From positions 1-64,000 of the IMG/VR virus record IMGVR_UViG_3300027759_003534: a stretch of DNA of 64,000 bases; one strand, given 5' to 3'. This stretch comes from a virus. Each line of letters starts with the position of its first letter. The stretch's first letter is position 1. The position numbers and the translations under genes were made by a program. Below the pieces are notes generated by a model. It was not told the DNA's origin. It searched no databases and saw only the letters and a list, made by a program, of their open reading frames with translations. Of this stretch, positions 15,373-19,667 are shown one piece after another.

Positions 15373-16455
15373 CTATCGCATTACACTGATGAAAGGCATG
15401 GGGGCAATTATAGCATCTCCGTGATCTCTCAGCTGATTATCAATGGTGGTATCGTAGGTTTGTAACAGTTGCATCATACGTACATTTAGCAGGGTAGCCA
15501 TGACCAAATCGTCAGTTTCCCCAGGTTTTGCCGCATAACTTACGCCATGTGCCACAAAGTTTTTGAGCTCGCTAACCAGGCTAGGACTGCGAATTTTCAT
15601 TTTTCCTGATTCTATTAAAGATTTAAGTTTGCTACAAGCAGTCAATTTATTTTTGTTAGTGGTGTTAAATCCTTTGCGATACCTACGACTTCCGCCAGCA
15701 CCGGCGTTGGGATCACTTAAAAAATAGCCCTGGATATTTTCTTCGCCATACTGAGAAATACTGATCAAGGCAGCTTCTCCAATGGTATTGTTCTCCACAC
15801 TGAAATAAACACTTTGTACGTCCTTGACTGTGTCAGTGATATGTTTGCAAATGTCTGCTAAGATACGCACCTGCTCAGGAATTGGTGTACGATTGTGTCG
15901 CCATTCTGCCACTTGTTCTGTAGTATTGGCTTCAAATACCTGGATAGCTGCTGGGTCGCCACCAGTGCCAAGGCTGGGATCCAAGGATACCACATAGGTT
16001 CGGCCAGCACGAGGAGTTTGGAACCAGCGTACTTGACCGGTTCTGTACAAGGGTTCGTGTCCTTGTAGATCTATCAGTTTAGTTGGGGCAATAAGTGTTT
16101 CATCATTTATAATAAATTCACAGTTTGAAACTAAAATATCATTGGCAAAAAATCTACGATTATTTTTTACATTTAACAAATCATATACAGTACTGGTACT
16201 ATCTAGTGTAACACTTACTACTTTTTGCAATCCTGATGCAGTGTATATTTGTGTGCCAACTCGAAGTTGACTAACTGGAATCATATCAAACTTGTTGGTA
16301 TAAATTTTATGATCCAAGGTAGCTTTGATAGAGGTATTGGTCAATTGTAATAAGGCTATCTGTTTTGACCCTTTATCAAGTAATCCTTCAAAATCACTCC
16401 AGCCAGTATCAGTTAGTACTTGTAATCCTAAATTATTTTCTAGTAAGTCTGCCAC
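15373..16455 (-). CDS. 17: Terminase large subunit, C-terminal part preceded by a C-intein
   Basis: A GTG start at 16455 is chosen because AAAGGA lies 7 nt upstream; a TTG at 16482 is also in frame but lacks such a site. The first 111 residues are the C-terminal half of an intein (to Ser-Asn at 16123). The extein begins with Cys at 16122-16120 (CEFIINDETLI) and runs 249 residues. It holds the RNase H-like nuclease domain of gp17: VVSLDPSLGTGGD with the first catalytic Asp, YFSVENNTIGEA and a final DDLVMATLL. Joined to the other half it would give a terminase of about 523 aa (T4 gp17 has 610). It cuts concatemeric DNA during packaging. The start overlaps the HNH gene by 23 nt. Confidence 0.88.
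   Translation of the reverse strand: MADLLENNLGLQVLTDTGWSDFEGLLDKGSKQIALLQLTNTSIKATLDHKIYTNKFDMIPVSQLRVGTQIYTASGLQKVVSVTLDSTSTVYDLLNVKNNRRFFANDILVSNCEFIINDETLIAPTKLIDLQGHEPLYRTGQVRWFQTPRAGRTYVVSLDPSLGTGGDPAAIQVFEANTTEQVAEWRHNRTPIPEQVRILADICKHITDTVKDVQSVYFSVENNTIGEAALISISQYGEENIQGYFLSDPNAGAGGSRRYRKGFNTTNKNKLTACSKLKSLIESGKMKIRSPSLVSELKNFVAHGVSYAAKPGETDDLVMATLLNVRMMQLLQTYDTTIDNQLRDHGDAIIAPMPFISVMR
16123..16455 (-). other. C-intein of a split intein in TerL
   Basis: About 111 residues before the terminase nuclease half. It contains the block B TxxH motif (ATLDHKIYT), block F (TVYDLLNV, then FFANDILV) and a terminal Ser-Asn before Cys+1. The penultimate residue is Ser instead of the common His. 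Most of the Hint fold is on this piece, because the N-piece is only 37 residues. Confidence 0.88.
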
Positions 16456-16972
16456 GAGCAAATCCTTTAGGTTGTTGGTCAACTACAAAATATTTTTCTT
16501 CAACGCCGTTGTTATACCAGGCCTTACCCGTGGCTGCACCAATTTTACCCTTGCTATTTTTACTAATATTGGCATTTCGGATAGGATCAGAATATACAGC
16601 GGCCATTTTTTCTTTATATTCTGTAGTGGATCTCATTTTTTCTTTGGTTGCTCGTTCTTCAGCTGACCATTTAGTGCCTTTCTTGCGTCCACCTACACCT
16701 GGGCGTTTAACACCTCTGTTAGGTGCCGGCTTTCCAAACATTGGATTTTTGTTTCCTTTTTTGCCTTCTGATAACAAAGTGTATATAATTTCAGCGTGGG
16801 GCATGATGCCTGCAAGACCAAGCCATGCTACTTTGTCTTGAGTATGCCCGTGTGTTTCATATAATAACCGATGTGCTTCTGCATGTTCTTCTACAGTAAG
16901 TTCTACAAGATTAGATGGGTCGTTGGATCCGCCCATGTATTTAGGAATAATATGATGTTTATGTTTTTTCAT
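16433..16972 (-). CDS. HNH homing endonuclease lying in the terminase split-intein gap
   Basis: The protein has 179 aa. The N-terminus KHHIIPKYMGGSNDPSNLVELTVEEHAEAH is an HNH nuclease of the phage type: His-His at 6-7, the central Asn and the second His pair at 30 and 34. Further on are NPMFGKPAPNRG and RRKGTKWSAEE-like NUMOD3 segments that contact DNA. It lies exactly between the two terminase pieces, 4 nt after the stop of the first and overlapping the start of the second by 23 nt. This is the 'fractured gene' pattern in which a split intein is interrupted by a free-standing endonuclease gene. It would cut intein-less terminase alleles to spread the arrangement. Confidence 0.88.
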   Translation of the reverse strand: MKKHKHHIIPKYMGGSNDPSNLVELTVEEHAEAHRLLYETHGHTQDKVAWLGLAGIMPHAEIIYTLLSEGKKGNKNPMFGKPAPNRGVKRPGVGGRKKGTKWSAEERATKEKMRSTTEYKEKMAAVYSDPIRNANISKNSKGKIGAATGKAWYNNGVEEKYFVVDQQPKGFARGRLTRK

Positions 16973-16976
16973 AAAC

Positions 16977-17912
16977 TTATTTAGTTGTCATTGATGATAA
17001 ACTCAGCATTTCTTTTAATTCATTGATAGTTTTTTTAAATATTTTTCCAGAACAATCTTTAAGAGTTAACACTGAATCTGGTGATAGACAACCCATCTCT
17101 CGACGGAAGCGGTCTTCGCCTAGCTGTGCTCGCTGTGCTATAGCCCAGGCTTCGTCACGATCTGGATGTTCATTCCAAAAACTACGGAATGCTTTGAATC
17201 CGTTGACCCCTACTGCGGTTGGATTGCCATAGCTGTCCTCGCACTTGTTGGCGCCTTTCCATAGTAGAGCAAATTGATCTTCGTCTGAGTTTGGTGTTGA
17301 TGTAATAATACATTTACCACCAGTGGCCAAGGTAGGACTAATGGAAGTCCAGAATTCACTGGCCACACCGGGGCGTACAAACGCAAACTCGTCAGCGTAC
17401 AGCAAGGATAGACTCATACCACGACCAGTATTTTCTGTGGTTGTCGCTGATACAATACGGCTGCCGTTTTCAAAGTCCAAGTTACCTTTGTTGTAACTGG
17501 TCACGCCTGCACGGATAAAATCTGGACAATCCTCGTAGGCATATCTGATACGTTGCATGATCTCTTGAGAACCAGTGTACTTGTGAGCTGCAATAAGGAT
17601 TGTGGAATCTGGTACAAACATAGCGTACCATAACAAGTAACCAGCGGCACTGGTACTCTTACCTGTTTGTCGCGGCATCATTGAGATTGAAAAACGATTT
17701 TCGTGGTAAACATCAATCAGGCGTTTTTGATAATCATAGGGATGATACATCATCTTGCCTTGAGTTGGGTGTTGTATATAAAAATAGTTGTCCATAAAAT
17801 ACGCCGGTCCGGACACAGGATCAGCACATTTTACAAACTCTGCTAACTGATCGTCAGTAAAGGTTGTATTTTTGTAAGGAGTTTTAACTAGATTTAATTG
17901 ATCTTTACTCAT
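16977..17912 (-). CDS. 17: Terminase large subunit, N-terminal ATPase part followed by an N-intein
   Basis: The protein has 311 aa, of which 274 are extein. Walker A is PRQTGKST (residues 80-87), Walker B is LLYADE (170-175) and the coupling motif is ITSTPN (near 203). This is the packaging ATPase domain of T4 gp17. At Cys 275 an N-intein begins and the ORF stops 37 codons later. On trans-splicing, REMG would be joined to CEF of the downstream piece. The nuclease half is encoded at 15373, with an HNH gene between. The motor domain translocates DNA into the prohead at the portal. No sign of decay is seen in either half. Confidence 0.92.
   Translation of the reverse strand: MSKDQLNLVKTPYKNTTFTDDQLAEFVKCADPVSGPAYFMDNYFYIQHPTQGKMMYHPYDYQKRLIDVYHENRFSISMMPRQTGKSTSAAGYLLWYAMFVPDSTILIAAHKYTGSQEIMQRIRYAYEDCPDFIRAGVTSYNKGNLDFENGSRIVSATTTENTGRGMSLSLLYADEFAFVRPGVASEFWTSISPTLATGGKCIITSTPNSDEDQFALLWKGANKCEDSYGNPTAVGVNGFKAFRSFWNEHPDRDEAWAIAQRAQLGEDRFRREMGCLSPDSVLTLKDCSGKIFKKTINELKEMLSLSSMTTK
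16980..17090 (-). other. N-intein of a split intein in TerL (37 aa)
   Basis: Residues 275-311 of the upstream terminase ORF begin with Cys right after REMG, where gp17 proteins pass from ATPase to nuclease domain. CLSPDSVLTLKD matches intein block A (Cys1, then a strand with a Gly/Asp turn). The piece then ends at a stop. At 37 residues it is far shorter than the roughly 100-residue N-piece of canonical split inteins. Confidence 0.85.
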
Positions 17913-17913
17913 G

Positions 17914-19038
17914 TTAAATTAACTTGTAAATTTCTGGCCATAACTTTTTAAATTGGCCTGTTTGATCTGTGTGATATGTATTTTCAATTTCTACTATATG
18001 GTCGTGTAAACCTGATCTTAGATCATCGTTACCACTAACAATGTGTTGTACATTTTCAAAAAATTGACGCTCATTGTCTAAAGCAATGTTGGCTTTTAAT
18101 AAATTTTCAATCTCGTTACGTGCCAGTTGTGCGATTTCTGGGCCTAATTTTACAGGATCTAAATAATCAGGTTGATATAAACTTTGCCAGTGTATTGTTA
18201 AATTTTGTTCTCTGGCAAAGTTGGTAAGTTCAATCACACGAGTAGCATTGTACAAATTGTAAACTGCATGTATGCCGCCCCATTGACCTTTTTGCATAAG
18301 ATTCTGTATGATATCAAGATTTTTTTCTAATAATGCCCAGGATCCGCCGTGGCGAACATATTCAAAATGTGATCCTATATTATCAAAACTCATTGACCAG
18401 CCAACTTTGGGCCTGTTGATTAACTTGCTGAATACTCGATTGTTATCTAACTCAACATTCATGTTAGTAATCAACGTAACCAGACAATCTTCAGGAATCA
18501 CATCAAGTAGCCGAGTATTTTCAGGTAAGAGCAAGGGTTCGCCGCCAACTAGTACCACTTCTTTGATGCTTGATTTGTGTGTTTCTAAATAATCACACAC
18601 TTGTTCATAGTAGGGTCGTGCTCCAGACTTGAACGGAATATGTTTAAGAGCTGCCCATTTTGAACTGCATTTGTCACCACAATAGTTACAGCTGAGATTA
18701 CAAGTGGTATTCCAGCGTACATCAACTATCACCGGCTGATGTTCAGTTAAACTGGCTGTGGTAGGATCAAACTCAGGACTGACATTGTTGTGCCAGTCTC
18801 GTTCACTGCGCCCGTAGCGTTCTGATTGCACACAATTGTAACAATATTTTGCATGTGGTTGTCCTTGACTGATACTTTGCCTAATCTCCTGCATAACAGG
18901 CCCATGTAAGATTTGTTCAATAGTTTGAGTGTTGAGATTGCCCAACATGTTAGGATCGCCGGCACAGCAGGTTTTAACGTCACCGTTTGGGTTGATATGT
19001 AGGCCGCGCCATGGAGCGGCGCAATAAAAATTGCTCAT
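17914..19038 (-). CDS. Radical SAM protein (twitch type)
   Basis: The protein has 374 aa. N-terminal [20 protein letters not shown] with CC, then [10 protein letters not shown], give the auxiliary Cys pattern. The core motif CNLSCNYC holds Cys 113, 117 and 120, and [10 protein letters not shown] follows near residue 164. It is close in layout to the protein at 8052 (both have a 'DVRW/T-CNL' approach to the motif and an 'EYVRHGGSW'-like segment), so they look like paralogues. Here it stands alone, directly upstream of terL (1-nt gap) and overlapping the GIY-YIG gene as ATGA. The substrate is unknown. Confidence 0.88.
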
Positions 19039-19667
19039 ACAGTAATTATGAGTGTTTTGAGCTTACAGTTATTAAAATGCCATCGTTTAGCATTACTTGA
19101 ATCAGCTGTTGTTTGGCAATGTGGGCAAGTTAAAAGTTTTCTAGTTTTTGTATGCGGGCCCGTTGGCTGTCTCATTTTAGATAAGGCTTCTTCACTATGG
19201 GTCTTGCCCGCAAATGTTCCAGGTTTGCCAAAGCGAGGATTTAGTTCTCCAACAAGCCTGCCTTTCATACATTCAGATTGTTCGGGTCGTTTTTTTCCAG
19301 TTAGCATCTTGCTAAATTCTGGACGCTTTCTGCCATACAGAGGAGATTCTTCACCTTTCTTTGCTATGCGTCCGGATGCCCCGTCACCCCCGTCTGTCTT
19401 GTTTAACAGAATGCCGGTGTTAATGTCTTTACGGCCCCACCATTGTATAAGTCTACGCTCAATGGCAAATGCACCAATTTCAGTTAAATTAGATTCAAGT
19501 ATTATTATTTTGCTACTGTCCTTTGGAACAGTAATATTATGTTTTTCAACTGCCCTGATATCTTTGCCCTTACCTATATAATAAGGTGTCAGGTTAGACT
19601 TTCGTAGATAAGCATAAACATAATAACCAGATGGTGGGTGTTTTTTGTTAAATATCATTGCTGGCAC
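19035..19667 (-). CDS. GIY-YIG homing endonuclease
   Basis: The protein has 210 aa. The N-terminus has the GIY-YIG pair as YVYAYLRK...PYYIGKG with the conserved Arg shortly after and an E-containing helix ([11 protein letters not shown]). NUMOD3-like repeats follow ([36 protein letters not shown]). It ends in a CPHC...KRWH....C knuckle shared with the endonuclease at 12312. A good Shine-Dalgarno (AAAGGAG) precedes the ATG, and the stop overlaps the next gene (ATGA). It is a free-standing mobile endonuclease in the style of T4 Seg proteins. Confidence 0.85.

What the first reader, a model, noticed from the sequence alone, without database searches (positions are those of the whole stretch)
15373..17912. 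Fractured terminase: split intein in TerL with an HNH gene in the break
Seen: the ATPase half ends in a 37-aa intein N-piece beginning with Cys right after REMG; the nuclease half begins with an intein C-piece ending Ser-Asn before Cys; an HNH gene lies between, spaced by 4 nt and overlapping by 23 nt. Known: split inteins with an interposed endonuclease ('fractured genes') are described from environmental phage data, and a TerL split intein with a very short N-piece (AceL-TerL) is known. Inference: this is a related, possibly distinct, member with its own HNH gene; the terminase would depend on trans-splicing.
Basis: partly seen in the sequence, partly recalled or inferred. Interest (0 to 1): 0.85.

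Follow-up and report, generated by a model that had tools for sequence, protein, structure and literature searches.

The report
Phage terminase split by mobile intein
In this uncultivated phage the gene for the DNA-packaging motor is broken in two by a mobile element (a split intein with a DNA-cutting gene in the gap), and the two protein halves almost certainly weld themselves together after translation; the arrangement is known in outline, but relatives show that the cutting gene comes with exchangeable catalytic heads.

Summary
TerL is in two pieces: the ATPase half ends REMG|C plus a 37-aa intein N-piece; an intact HNH gene follows after 4 nt; it overlaps by 23 nt the gene for a 111-aa intein C-piece ending SN|CEF, fused to the TerL nuclease half. 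A near-identical phage (L005) has the same TerL uninterrupted at exactly that bond. Twenty-six viral contigs carry the intein at this site. One (L105) encodes the two pieces as a single contiguous mini-intein; its AlphaFold model (pLDDT 94) is a Hint fold closest to VidaL. Window and L003 share the cassette at 92% nt while their exteins share 73%, with the change at the intein ends: horizontal mobility. The nuclease slot holds HNH (17 contigs), a GIY-YIG head on the same tail (6), or nothing (1). Cultured T4-type phages carry equivalent fractured TerL genes (PX29 so annotated; Providencia PSTRCR_127, Serratia 92A1, Vibrio EniLVp02). Verdict: a genuine, apparently functional atypical split intein in TerL, a new member of the AceL/GOS-TerL, 'fractured gene' kind. 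New here are the nuclease-head exchange, the conserved overlap and the re-fused state. Splicing and cleavage are inferred, not shown.

The parts
17091..17912 (-). TerL N-extein: ATPase half, 274 aa, ends DRFRREMG
   Evidence: Pfam Terminase_6N E 2.6e-13; PHROG terminase large subunit 1.6e-67
16980..17090 (-). Intein N-piece (IntN), 37 aa, starts Cys1; stop codon 16979..16977
   Evidence: 13 of first 25 residues identical to the N-part of the contiguous intein of L105, 0 of 100000 shuffles as good
16433..16972 (-). HNH homing-type endonuclease gene, 179 aa, in the break; 4 nt after the TerL-N stop
   Evidence: PHROG homing endonuclease 5.2e-17; HNH residues H6/H7, N21, H30, H34 invariant in 12 relatives; dN/dS 0.06-0.15
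16733..16972 (-). HNH catalytic head (aa 1-80), replaced by a GIY-YIG head in L006/L007, L109, L111, L115, L119
   Evidence: no match of head to L006 nuclease; GIY head in L006
16436..16732 (-). Nuclease tail (aa 81-179), presumed DNA-binding part, shared by HNH and GIY-YIG versions
   Evidence: 58% identity over 98 aa to the L006 GIY nuclease, E 2e-36; found with GIY heads almost only at this TerL site
16433..16455 (-). 23-nt overlap of the HNH gene end and the C-piece gene start
   Evidence: exactly 23 nt in 16 of 19 loci measured, 26 nt in L017 and L085, 47 nt in L006
16463..16467 (-). AAGGA, Shine-Dalgarno-like, inside the HNH gene, 7 nt before the GTG start of the C-piece gene
   Evidence: similar purine-rich AGGA/AAGG site at the same place in most relatives
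16123..16455 (-). Intein C-piece (IntC), 111 aa: TLDH block B, VYDLLNV block F, terminal Ser-Asn
   Evidence: profile hits VidaL 1.3e-9, CatC 2.7e-5; conserved in 22 relatives; dN/dS 0.03-0.14
15376..16122 (-). TerL C-extein: nuclease half, 249 aa, starts with Cys+1 (CEF); stop codon 15375..15373
   Evidence: Pfam Terminase_6C E 6.2e-7; gp17-type terminase nuclease domains in PDB (3c6a, 3cpe)

Best explanation
A mobile, naturally split intein of the atypical (short N-piece) kind sits in the large terminase gene, between the ATPase and nuclease domains, with a homing endonuclease gene in the break. Proposed mechanism: the three genes are translated from one mRNA, the third probably by coupling through the 23-nt overlap. 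The 37-aa IntN docks into the 111-aa IntC to complete a Hint fold. Cys1 attacks the Gly274-Cys bond, the acyl group passes to Cys+1, the terminal Asn cyclises, and the two TerL halves are ligated as REMG-CEF, restoring the 523-aa motor. The HNH protein, aimed by its tail at the conserved empty TerL site, cuts TerL of co-infecting relatives. Repair then copies IntN-HNH-IntC into them. Shown by sequence: the parts, the exact empty site, the conserved catalytic residues, purifying selection, and horizontal transfer. Shown by model: the Hint fold of the fused homologue. Inferred: splicing, coupling, cleavage and homing.
For: Exact layout. Empty allele L005, exteins 96 and 98% identical in protein, uninterrupted at the same bond; 73 empty relatives all have Cys at +1. 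Intein profile hits. L105 carries both pieces as one contiguous 132-aa intein at the same bond, model pLDDT 94.2, best PDB match VidaL, TM 0.87, E 3.5e-10, then other inteins. Cys1, TxDH, VYD, terminal Asn and Cys+1 are conserved in all complete members. Cassette vs L003 92% nt and dS 0.2-0.4, against exteins 73% nt and dS 2.5, with the change at the intein ends; the same for L101/L103/L104. HNH motif intact. No Rfam intron. Cultured phages with the same kind of break in TerL exist and were propagated: PX29, PSTRCR_127, 92A1, EniLVp02.
Against: No splicing or cleavage was measured. The penultimate His of most inteins is Ser here (Lys in some relatives). Pfam's intein model alone stays below its cut-off. 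The halves were not co-folded; the Hint fold rests on a homologue. The HNH model is of moderate confidence and finds no significant PDB match.
Confidence: 0.93

Rival explanations
1. Genes in pieces without ligation: the two TerL halves work as separate subunits held together by the intein pieces or by themselves, as reported for a phage ribonucleotide reductase split by a homing endonuclease (Friedrich et al. 2007, cited in PMC10448857).
For: The break lies between the two TerL domains: Terminase_6N ends at residue 279 of the N-half, Terminase_6C begins about 45 residues after the junction. The penultimate His is missing.
Against: All residues needed for full splicing, on both pieces and at +1, are conserved across 20-odd diverged members and under purifying selection. 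L105 keeps the same intein where both halves are already one chain, which makes sense only if it splices out.
Confidence: 0.05
2. RNA-level splicing: the insert is an intron carrying an HNH gene, as for introns that interrupt phage genes such as terL of ICP1.
For: terL of phage ICP1 is joined by RNA splicing, and introns with HNH genes interrupt other phage genes (PMC10448857).
Against: No Rfam group I/II or other match at E<=1. The flanking 37 and 111 codons are open, in frame with the exteins, conserved as protein and homologous to inteins.
Confidence: 0.01
3. Dead remnant or assembly artefact: the TerL gene is broken and the intein is decaying.
For: L115 has a frame break inside its GIY-YIG nuclease, so decay of the nuclease does occur in the family.
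Against: Same structure in 26 contigs from many samples, with dN/dS of 0.03-0.27 for the pieces; no second TerL-N match in the 182-kb record.
Confidence: 0.01

Closest known systems
AceL-TerL and GOS-TerL split inteins (Thiel 2014; Bachmann & Mootz 2015; described in PMC11766414 and PMC13014065) and the Cat consensus intein (PDB 6DSL)
   Same: Large-terminase host, short N-piece split after the first helix (25 and 37 aa; here 37 aa), Cys+1; IntC profile hits CatC at E 2.7e-5.
   Different: Cys1 here, Ser1 in GOS-TerL; remote in sequence; penultimate Ser. Whether their insertion bond is identical was not tested (their loci are not in the tools).
Fractured genes (Dassa et al. 2009; paper not held, known from citations and memory)
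   Same: Host gene broken inside a split intein with an endonuclease gene in the gap.
   Different: This one breaks TerL with an HNH nuclease whose tail is shared with GIY-YIG versions; overlap with the C-gene conserved.
Aeromonas phage PX29 gp17A/17B (GenBank GU396103, annotated 'putative N-intein' and 'putative GIY-YIG endonuclease and C-intein')
   Same: Cultured T4-type phage with TerL split by an intein in the same region (FQQEH|C...C), endonuclease between.
   Different: GIY-YIG (SegE type) fused in frame to the C-piece; insertion one codon upstream of the window's bond by alignment.
Providencia phage PSTRCR_127 and Serratia phage 92A1
   Same: Three-gene layout TerL-N / nuclease / TerL-C with overlapping ends; 30-32% identical C-piece.
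   Different: SegE-type GIY-YIG nuclease with a different tail; canonical THN end; one codon upstream; the nuclease is annotated only as a hypothetical protein.
Vibrio phage EniLVp02
   Same: Same bond as the window by alignment (QEHN|CSF); split N- and C-pieces.
   Different: No nuclease at all: the two intein genes overlap directly.
VidaL intein (PDB 6VGV)
   Same: Best sequence and fold match among solved inteins.
   Different: Split earlier (16-aa N-piece, PMC13014065); about 20% identity.

Membership tests
Intein (Hint fold, protein splicing) | Hint fold | tested here: met
   On the natural contiguous homologue L105, pLDDT 94.2, VidaL TM 0.87; the window's own two pieces could not be co-folded
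Intein (Hint fold, protein splicing) | Nucleophile at position 1, block B T..H, block F Asp, C-terminal Asn, nucleophile at +1 | tested here: met
   C1, TLDH, VYD, SN, C+1
Intein (Hint fold, protein splicing) | Penultimate His | tested here: not met
   Ser here, Lys in five relatives; common but not obligatory in inteins (own knowledge)
Intein (Hint fold, protein splicing) | Autocatalytic ligation of the exteins | not testable with these tools
   needs expression
Atypical (short-IntN) naturally split intein | Two separate genes, N-piece of about 15-37 aa | tested here: met
   37-aa IntN, 111-aa IntC on separate ORFs; range from PMC13014065
AceL/GOS-TerL group | Host gene TerL and sequence kinship | tested here: met
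   TerL by Pfam/PHROG; CatC match E 2.7e-5
AceL/GOS-TerL group | Same insertion bond | not tested
   AceL and GOS loci not held
Fractured gene | Endonuclease gene between the intein pieces | tested here: met
   HNH gene 16972..16433
Fractured gene | Uninterrupted alleles in relatives | tested here: met
   L005 and 72 others
Homing element | Horizontal transfer of the cassette between diverged alleles | tested here: met
   cassette 92% nt vs exteins 73% between window and L003; L101/L103/L104 likewise
Homing element | Nuclease cuts the empty allele | not testable with these tools
   needs biochemistry
HNH endonuclease (Pfam HNH) | Model score over cut-off and catalytic residues | tested here: inconclusive
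   Pfam HNH 19.4 bits against a cut-off of 21.4; PHROG homing endonuclease 5.2e-17; H, N, H residues invariant
Self-splicing intron | Intron RNA structure | tested here: not met
   no Rfam match at E<=1

The most novel reading that the evidence does not exclude
One bond of the phage large terminase is a standing homing site whose whole life cycle is visible: empty; split with HNH; split with GIY-YIG on the same site-specific tail; split without nuclease; and healed into a contiguous mini-intein. The tail, which reads the TerL site, stays while catalytic heads are exchanged with free-standing endonuclease genes next door, so that a fractured gene works as a docking slot for interchangeable nucleases.
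Probability: 0.6. Interest if true: 0.62.

Novelty: new member of a known kind. Interest (0 to 1): 0.5.

Why it matters
TerL is essential, so these phages must stake packaging on protein ligation. The family supplies some twenty natural, diverged atypical split inteins with short N-pieces, the class prized for protein labelling, plus a natural fused counterpart (L105) that gives a direct test of what splitting costs. The head exchange between HNH and GIY-YIG nucleases on one tail makes it possible to ask which part of a homing endonuclease sets the target and how a split intein keeps its driver. Cultured carriers mean that trans-splicing of an essential phage motor can be tested in the laboratory now.

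Tried and rejected
Pfam and NCBIfam scans of the single proteins: intein signal below cut-off, so not usable alone. Rfam scan for introns: nothing. Search for further inteins in the rest of the 182-kb record with the C-piece profile and Pfam Intein_splicing: only this one; a differently built intein could be missed. IntC profile in bacterial/archaeal genomes: no relative. PDB search with the HNH model (pLDDT 77): no significant match. Test of a single origin of the GIY-YIG versions on the tail tree: the tree needs two changes, but the AU test does not reject one (p 0.095); so at least one head exchange is claimed, not two. Direct folding of the window's two pieces together was not attempted because a joined chain is not a natural sequence of the window. 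Papers by Dassa 2009 and Bachmann 2015 are not held, so whether HNH/GIY exchange was noted there is unchecked.

Full report
What is there. On the minus strand of the window, which lies in a 182,566-base IMG/VR virus record, the large terminase is encoded in two genes. The first (17912..16977, 311 aa) is a T4-type ATPase half (Terminase_6N, E 2.6e-13). After DRFRREMG it runs on into 37 residues beginning CLSPDSVLTL. Four bases after its stop begins a 179-aa HNH gene (16972..16433; PHROG homing endonuclease, E 5.2e-17). The third gene overlaps the end of the HNH gene and encodes 111 residues ending ANDILVSN followed by CEF and the terminase nuclease half (Terminase_6C, E 6.2e-7). The mechanical ORF opens at TTG 16482, but relatives agree on a start at GTG 16455, with AAGGA upstream: in L006 an in-frame stop directly precedes the matching GTG, and in L017 an ATG stands at that place.

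Is it an intein? Single curated models are weak (Pfam Intein_splicing E 0.03, under cut-off). A five-member profile of the C-piece finds VidaL (E 1.3e-9), DnaX, NrdJ-1, gp41-1 and the consensus TerL intein CatC (E 2.7e-5) in the PDB, and ordinary inteins below them. The decisive object is L105. There, at the same TerL bond, IntN and IntC are one uninterrupted 132-aa chain without nuclease: REME|CLALNSML...DLYNNTERLQVLTDTGW...LCSN|CEF. Its IntN shares 13 of 25 residues with the window's (none of 100,000 shuffles did as well) and its IntC about 63%. AlphaFold2 gives pLDDT 94.2 and pTM 0.86; Foldseek returns VidaL first (TM 0.87, E 3.5e-10) and then inteins and hedgehog-type Hint domains. So the two pieces in the window are the halves of a Hint domain.

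Empty site and mobility. L005 is a phage whose TerL halves are 96 and 98% identical to the window's and are uninterrupted at exactly Gly274|Cys275. Of the 80 best TerL relatives, 73 have the contiguous site, all with Cys at the would-be +1 position. Window and L003 share the whole cassette at 92% nt (dS 0.2-0.4) although their TerL exteins are 73% identical (dS about 2.5); the change in identity falls at the intein ends. L101, L103 and L104 show the same. This is the mark of horizontal movement into diverged alleles. All pieces are under purifying selection (dN/dS 0.03-0.27).

The family. Two scans (IntC profile and HNH protein) give 26 viral contigs with this intein at this bond: 17 with HNH, 6 with GIY-YIG, one without nuclease, two cut off before the slot. 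The gene overlap is exactly 23 nt in 16 of 19 loci measured and 26 or 47 nt in the others (for L085 the start is one codon upstream of the computed one). I infer translational coupling.

Exchange of nuclease heads. The L006 nuclease is a chimera. Its tail is 58% identical to the tail of the window's HNH protein (E 2e-36). Its head has no similarity to the HNH head but is 64% identical to the GIY-YIG head of a free-standing gene in the window itself, 19667..19035, a little upstream of the terminase. L109, L111, L115 and L119 have the same kind of protein. In a scan for the GIY-YIG nuclease, 600 stretches matched a pattern (limit reached) and 575 encode relatives. Among the best 80 loci the tail goes with the head almost only at the TerL break, and several intact TerL genes have a GIY-YIG gene near by (L133, L144, L162). 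HNH heads likewise occur elsewhere with other tails (L088, L089). The simplest reading is that the tail reads the TerL site and heads are swapped in from neighbours. The tail tree asks for two swaps, but one is not excluded (AU p 0.095).

Cultured relatives. Aeromonas phage PX29 was deposited with gp17A 'contains putative N-intein' and gp17B 'putative GIY-YIG endonuclease and C-intein'. Providencia phage PSTRCR_127 and Serratia phage 92A1 have TerL-N, a SegE-type GIY-YIG gene and TerL-C with overlapping ends; the nuclease is annotated as a hypothetical protein. Vibrio phage EniLVp02 has a split intein with no nuclease. In PX29, PSTRCR_127 and 92A1 the insertion lies one codon upstream of the window's bond by alignment; in EniLVp02 it is the same bond. 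As these phages grow and TerL is essential, ligation must work in them, or the halves must work unligated; the conserved splicing residues and L105 favour ligation.

Known and new. Short-N-piece split inteins in TerL are known (AceL-TerL 25 aa, GOS-TerL 37 aa; PMC11766414, PMC13014065), and split inteins with an endonuclease in the gap have been called fractured genes since 2009 (cited in PMC10448857; original not held). The window's locus is therefore a new member of a known kind. I found no description in the held papers of the HNH/GIY-YIG exchange on a common tail, the conserved overlap, or the healed copy beside split ones; the 2009 and 2015 originals could not be read, so priority is uncertain.

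Noticed in passing
window 19035..19667 (-): Free-standing GIY-YIG endonuclease gene whose head is 64% identical to the GIY-YIG head found inside the TerL break of L006: a possible donor of nuclease heads.
   Followed up: partly
window 17914..19038 (-): Radical SAM/SPASM gene directly upstream of TerL-N; L003 has a similar gene in the same place. Its role next to a terminase is unexplained.
   Followed up: no
L061, L072 (TerL around MPRQTGK and CDEF): TerL with two inteins: a large contiguous one in the P-loop (MPRQTGK|ALDVNTP...THN|STSAAG, apparently Ala1, perhaps LAGLIDADG-bearing) and a split one at the Walker B site (|CDEF) whose break holds a different endonuclease in each locus.
   Followed up: partly
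L105 and L118: TerL with inteins at two sites, Walker B and the window's bond; in L105 the second is contiguous, so one protein would need one trans- and one cis-splicing event.
   Followed up: partly
L128 (NC_054928, Escherichia phage vB_vPM_PD112) 115..2706: Cultured T4-like coliphages have TerL fractured at the Walker B motif (IDE|C...SHN|CAF) with an endonuclease gene between; a laboratory system for TerL trans-splicing.
   Followed up: partly
L090 and L093: The same HNH head family lies antisense inside what look like fractured RecA-like and gp41-like helicase genes with split intein pieces.
   Followed up: no
L115 3344..3678: GIY-YIG gene in the TerL break with a frame break: nuclease decaying or assembly error.
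   Followed up: no
L126, L127, L121, L122: The insertion bond is shifted by one codon between most T4-family carriers (QEH|C) and the window's family and EniLVp02 (one residue later), apparently following a Cys at +1.
   Followed up: partly
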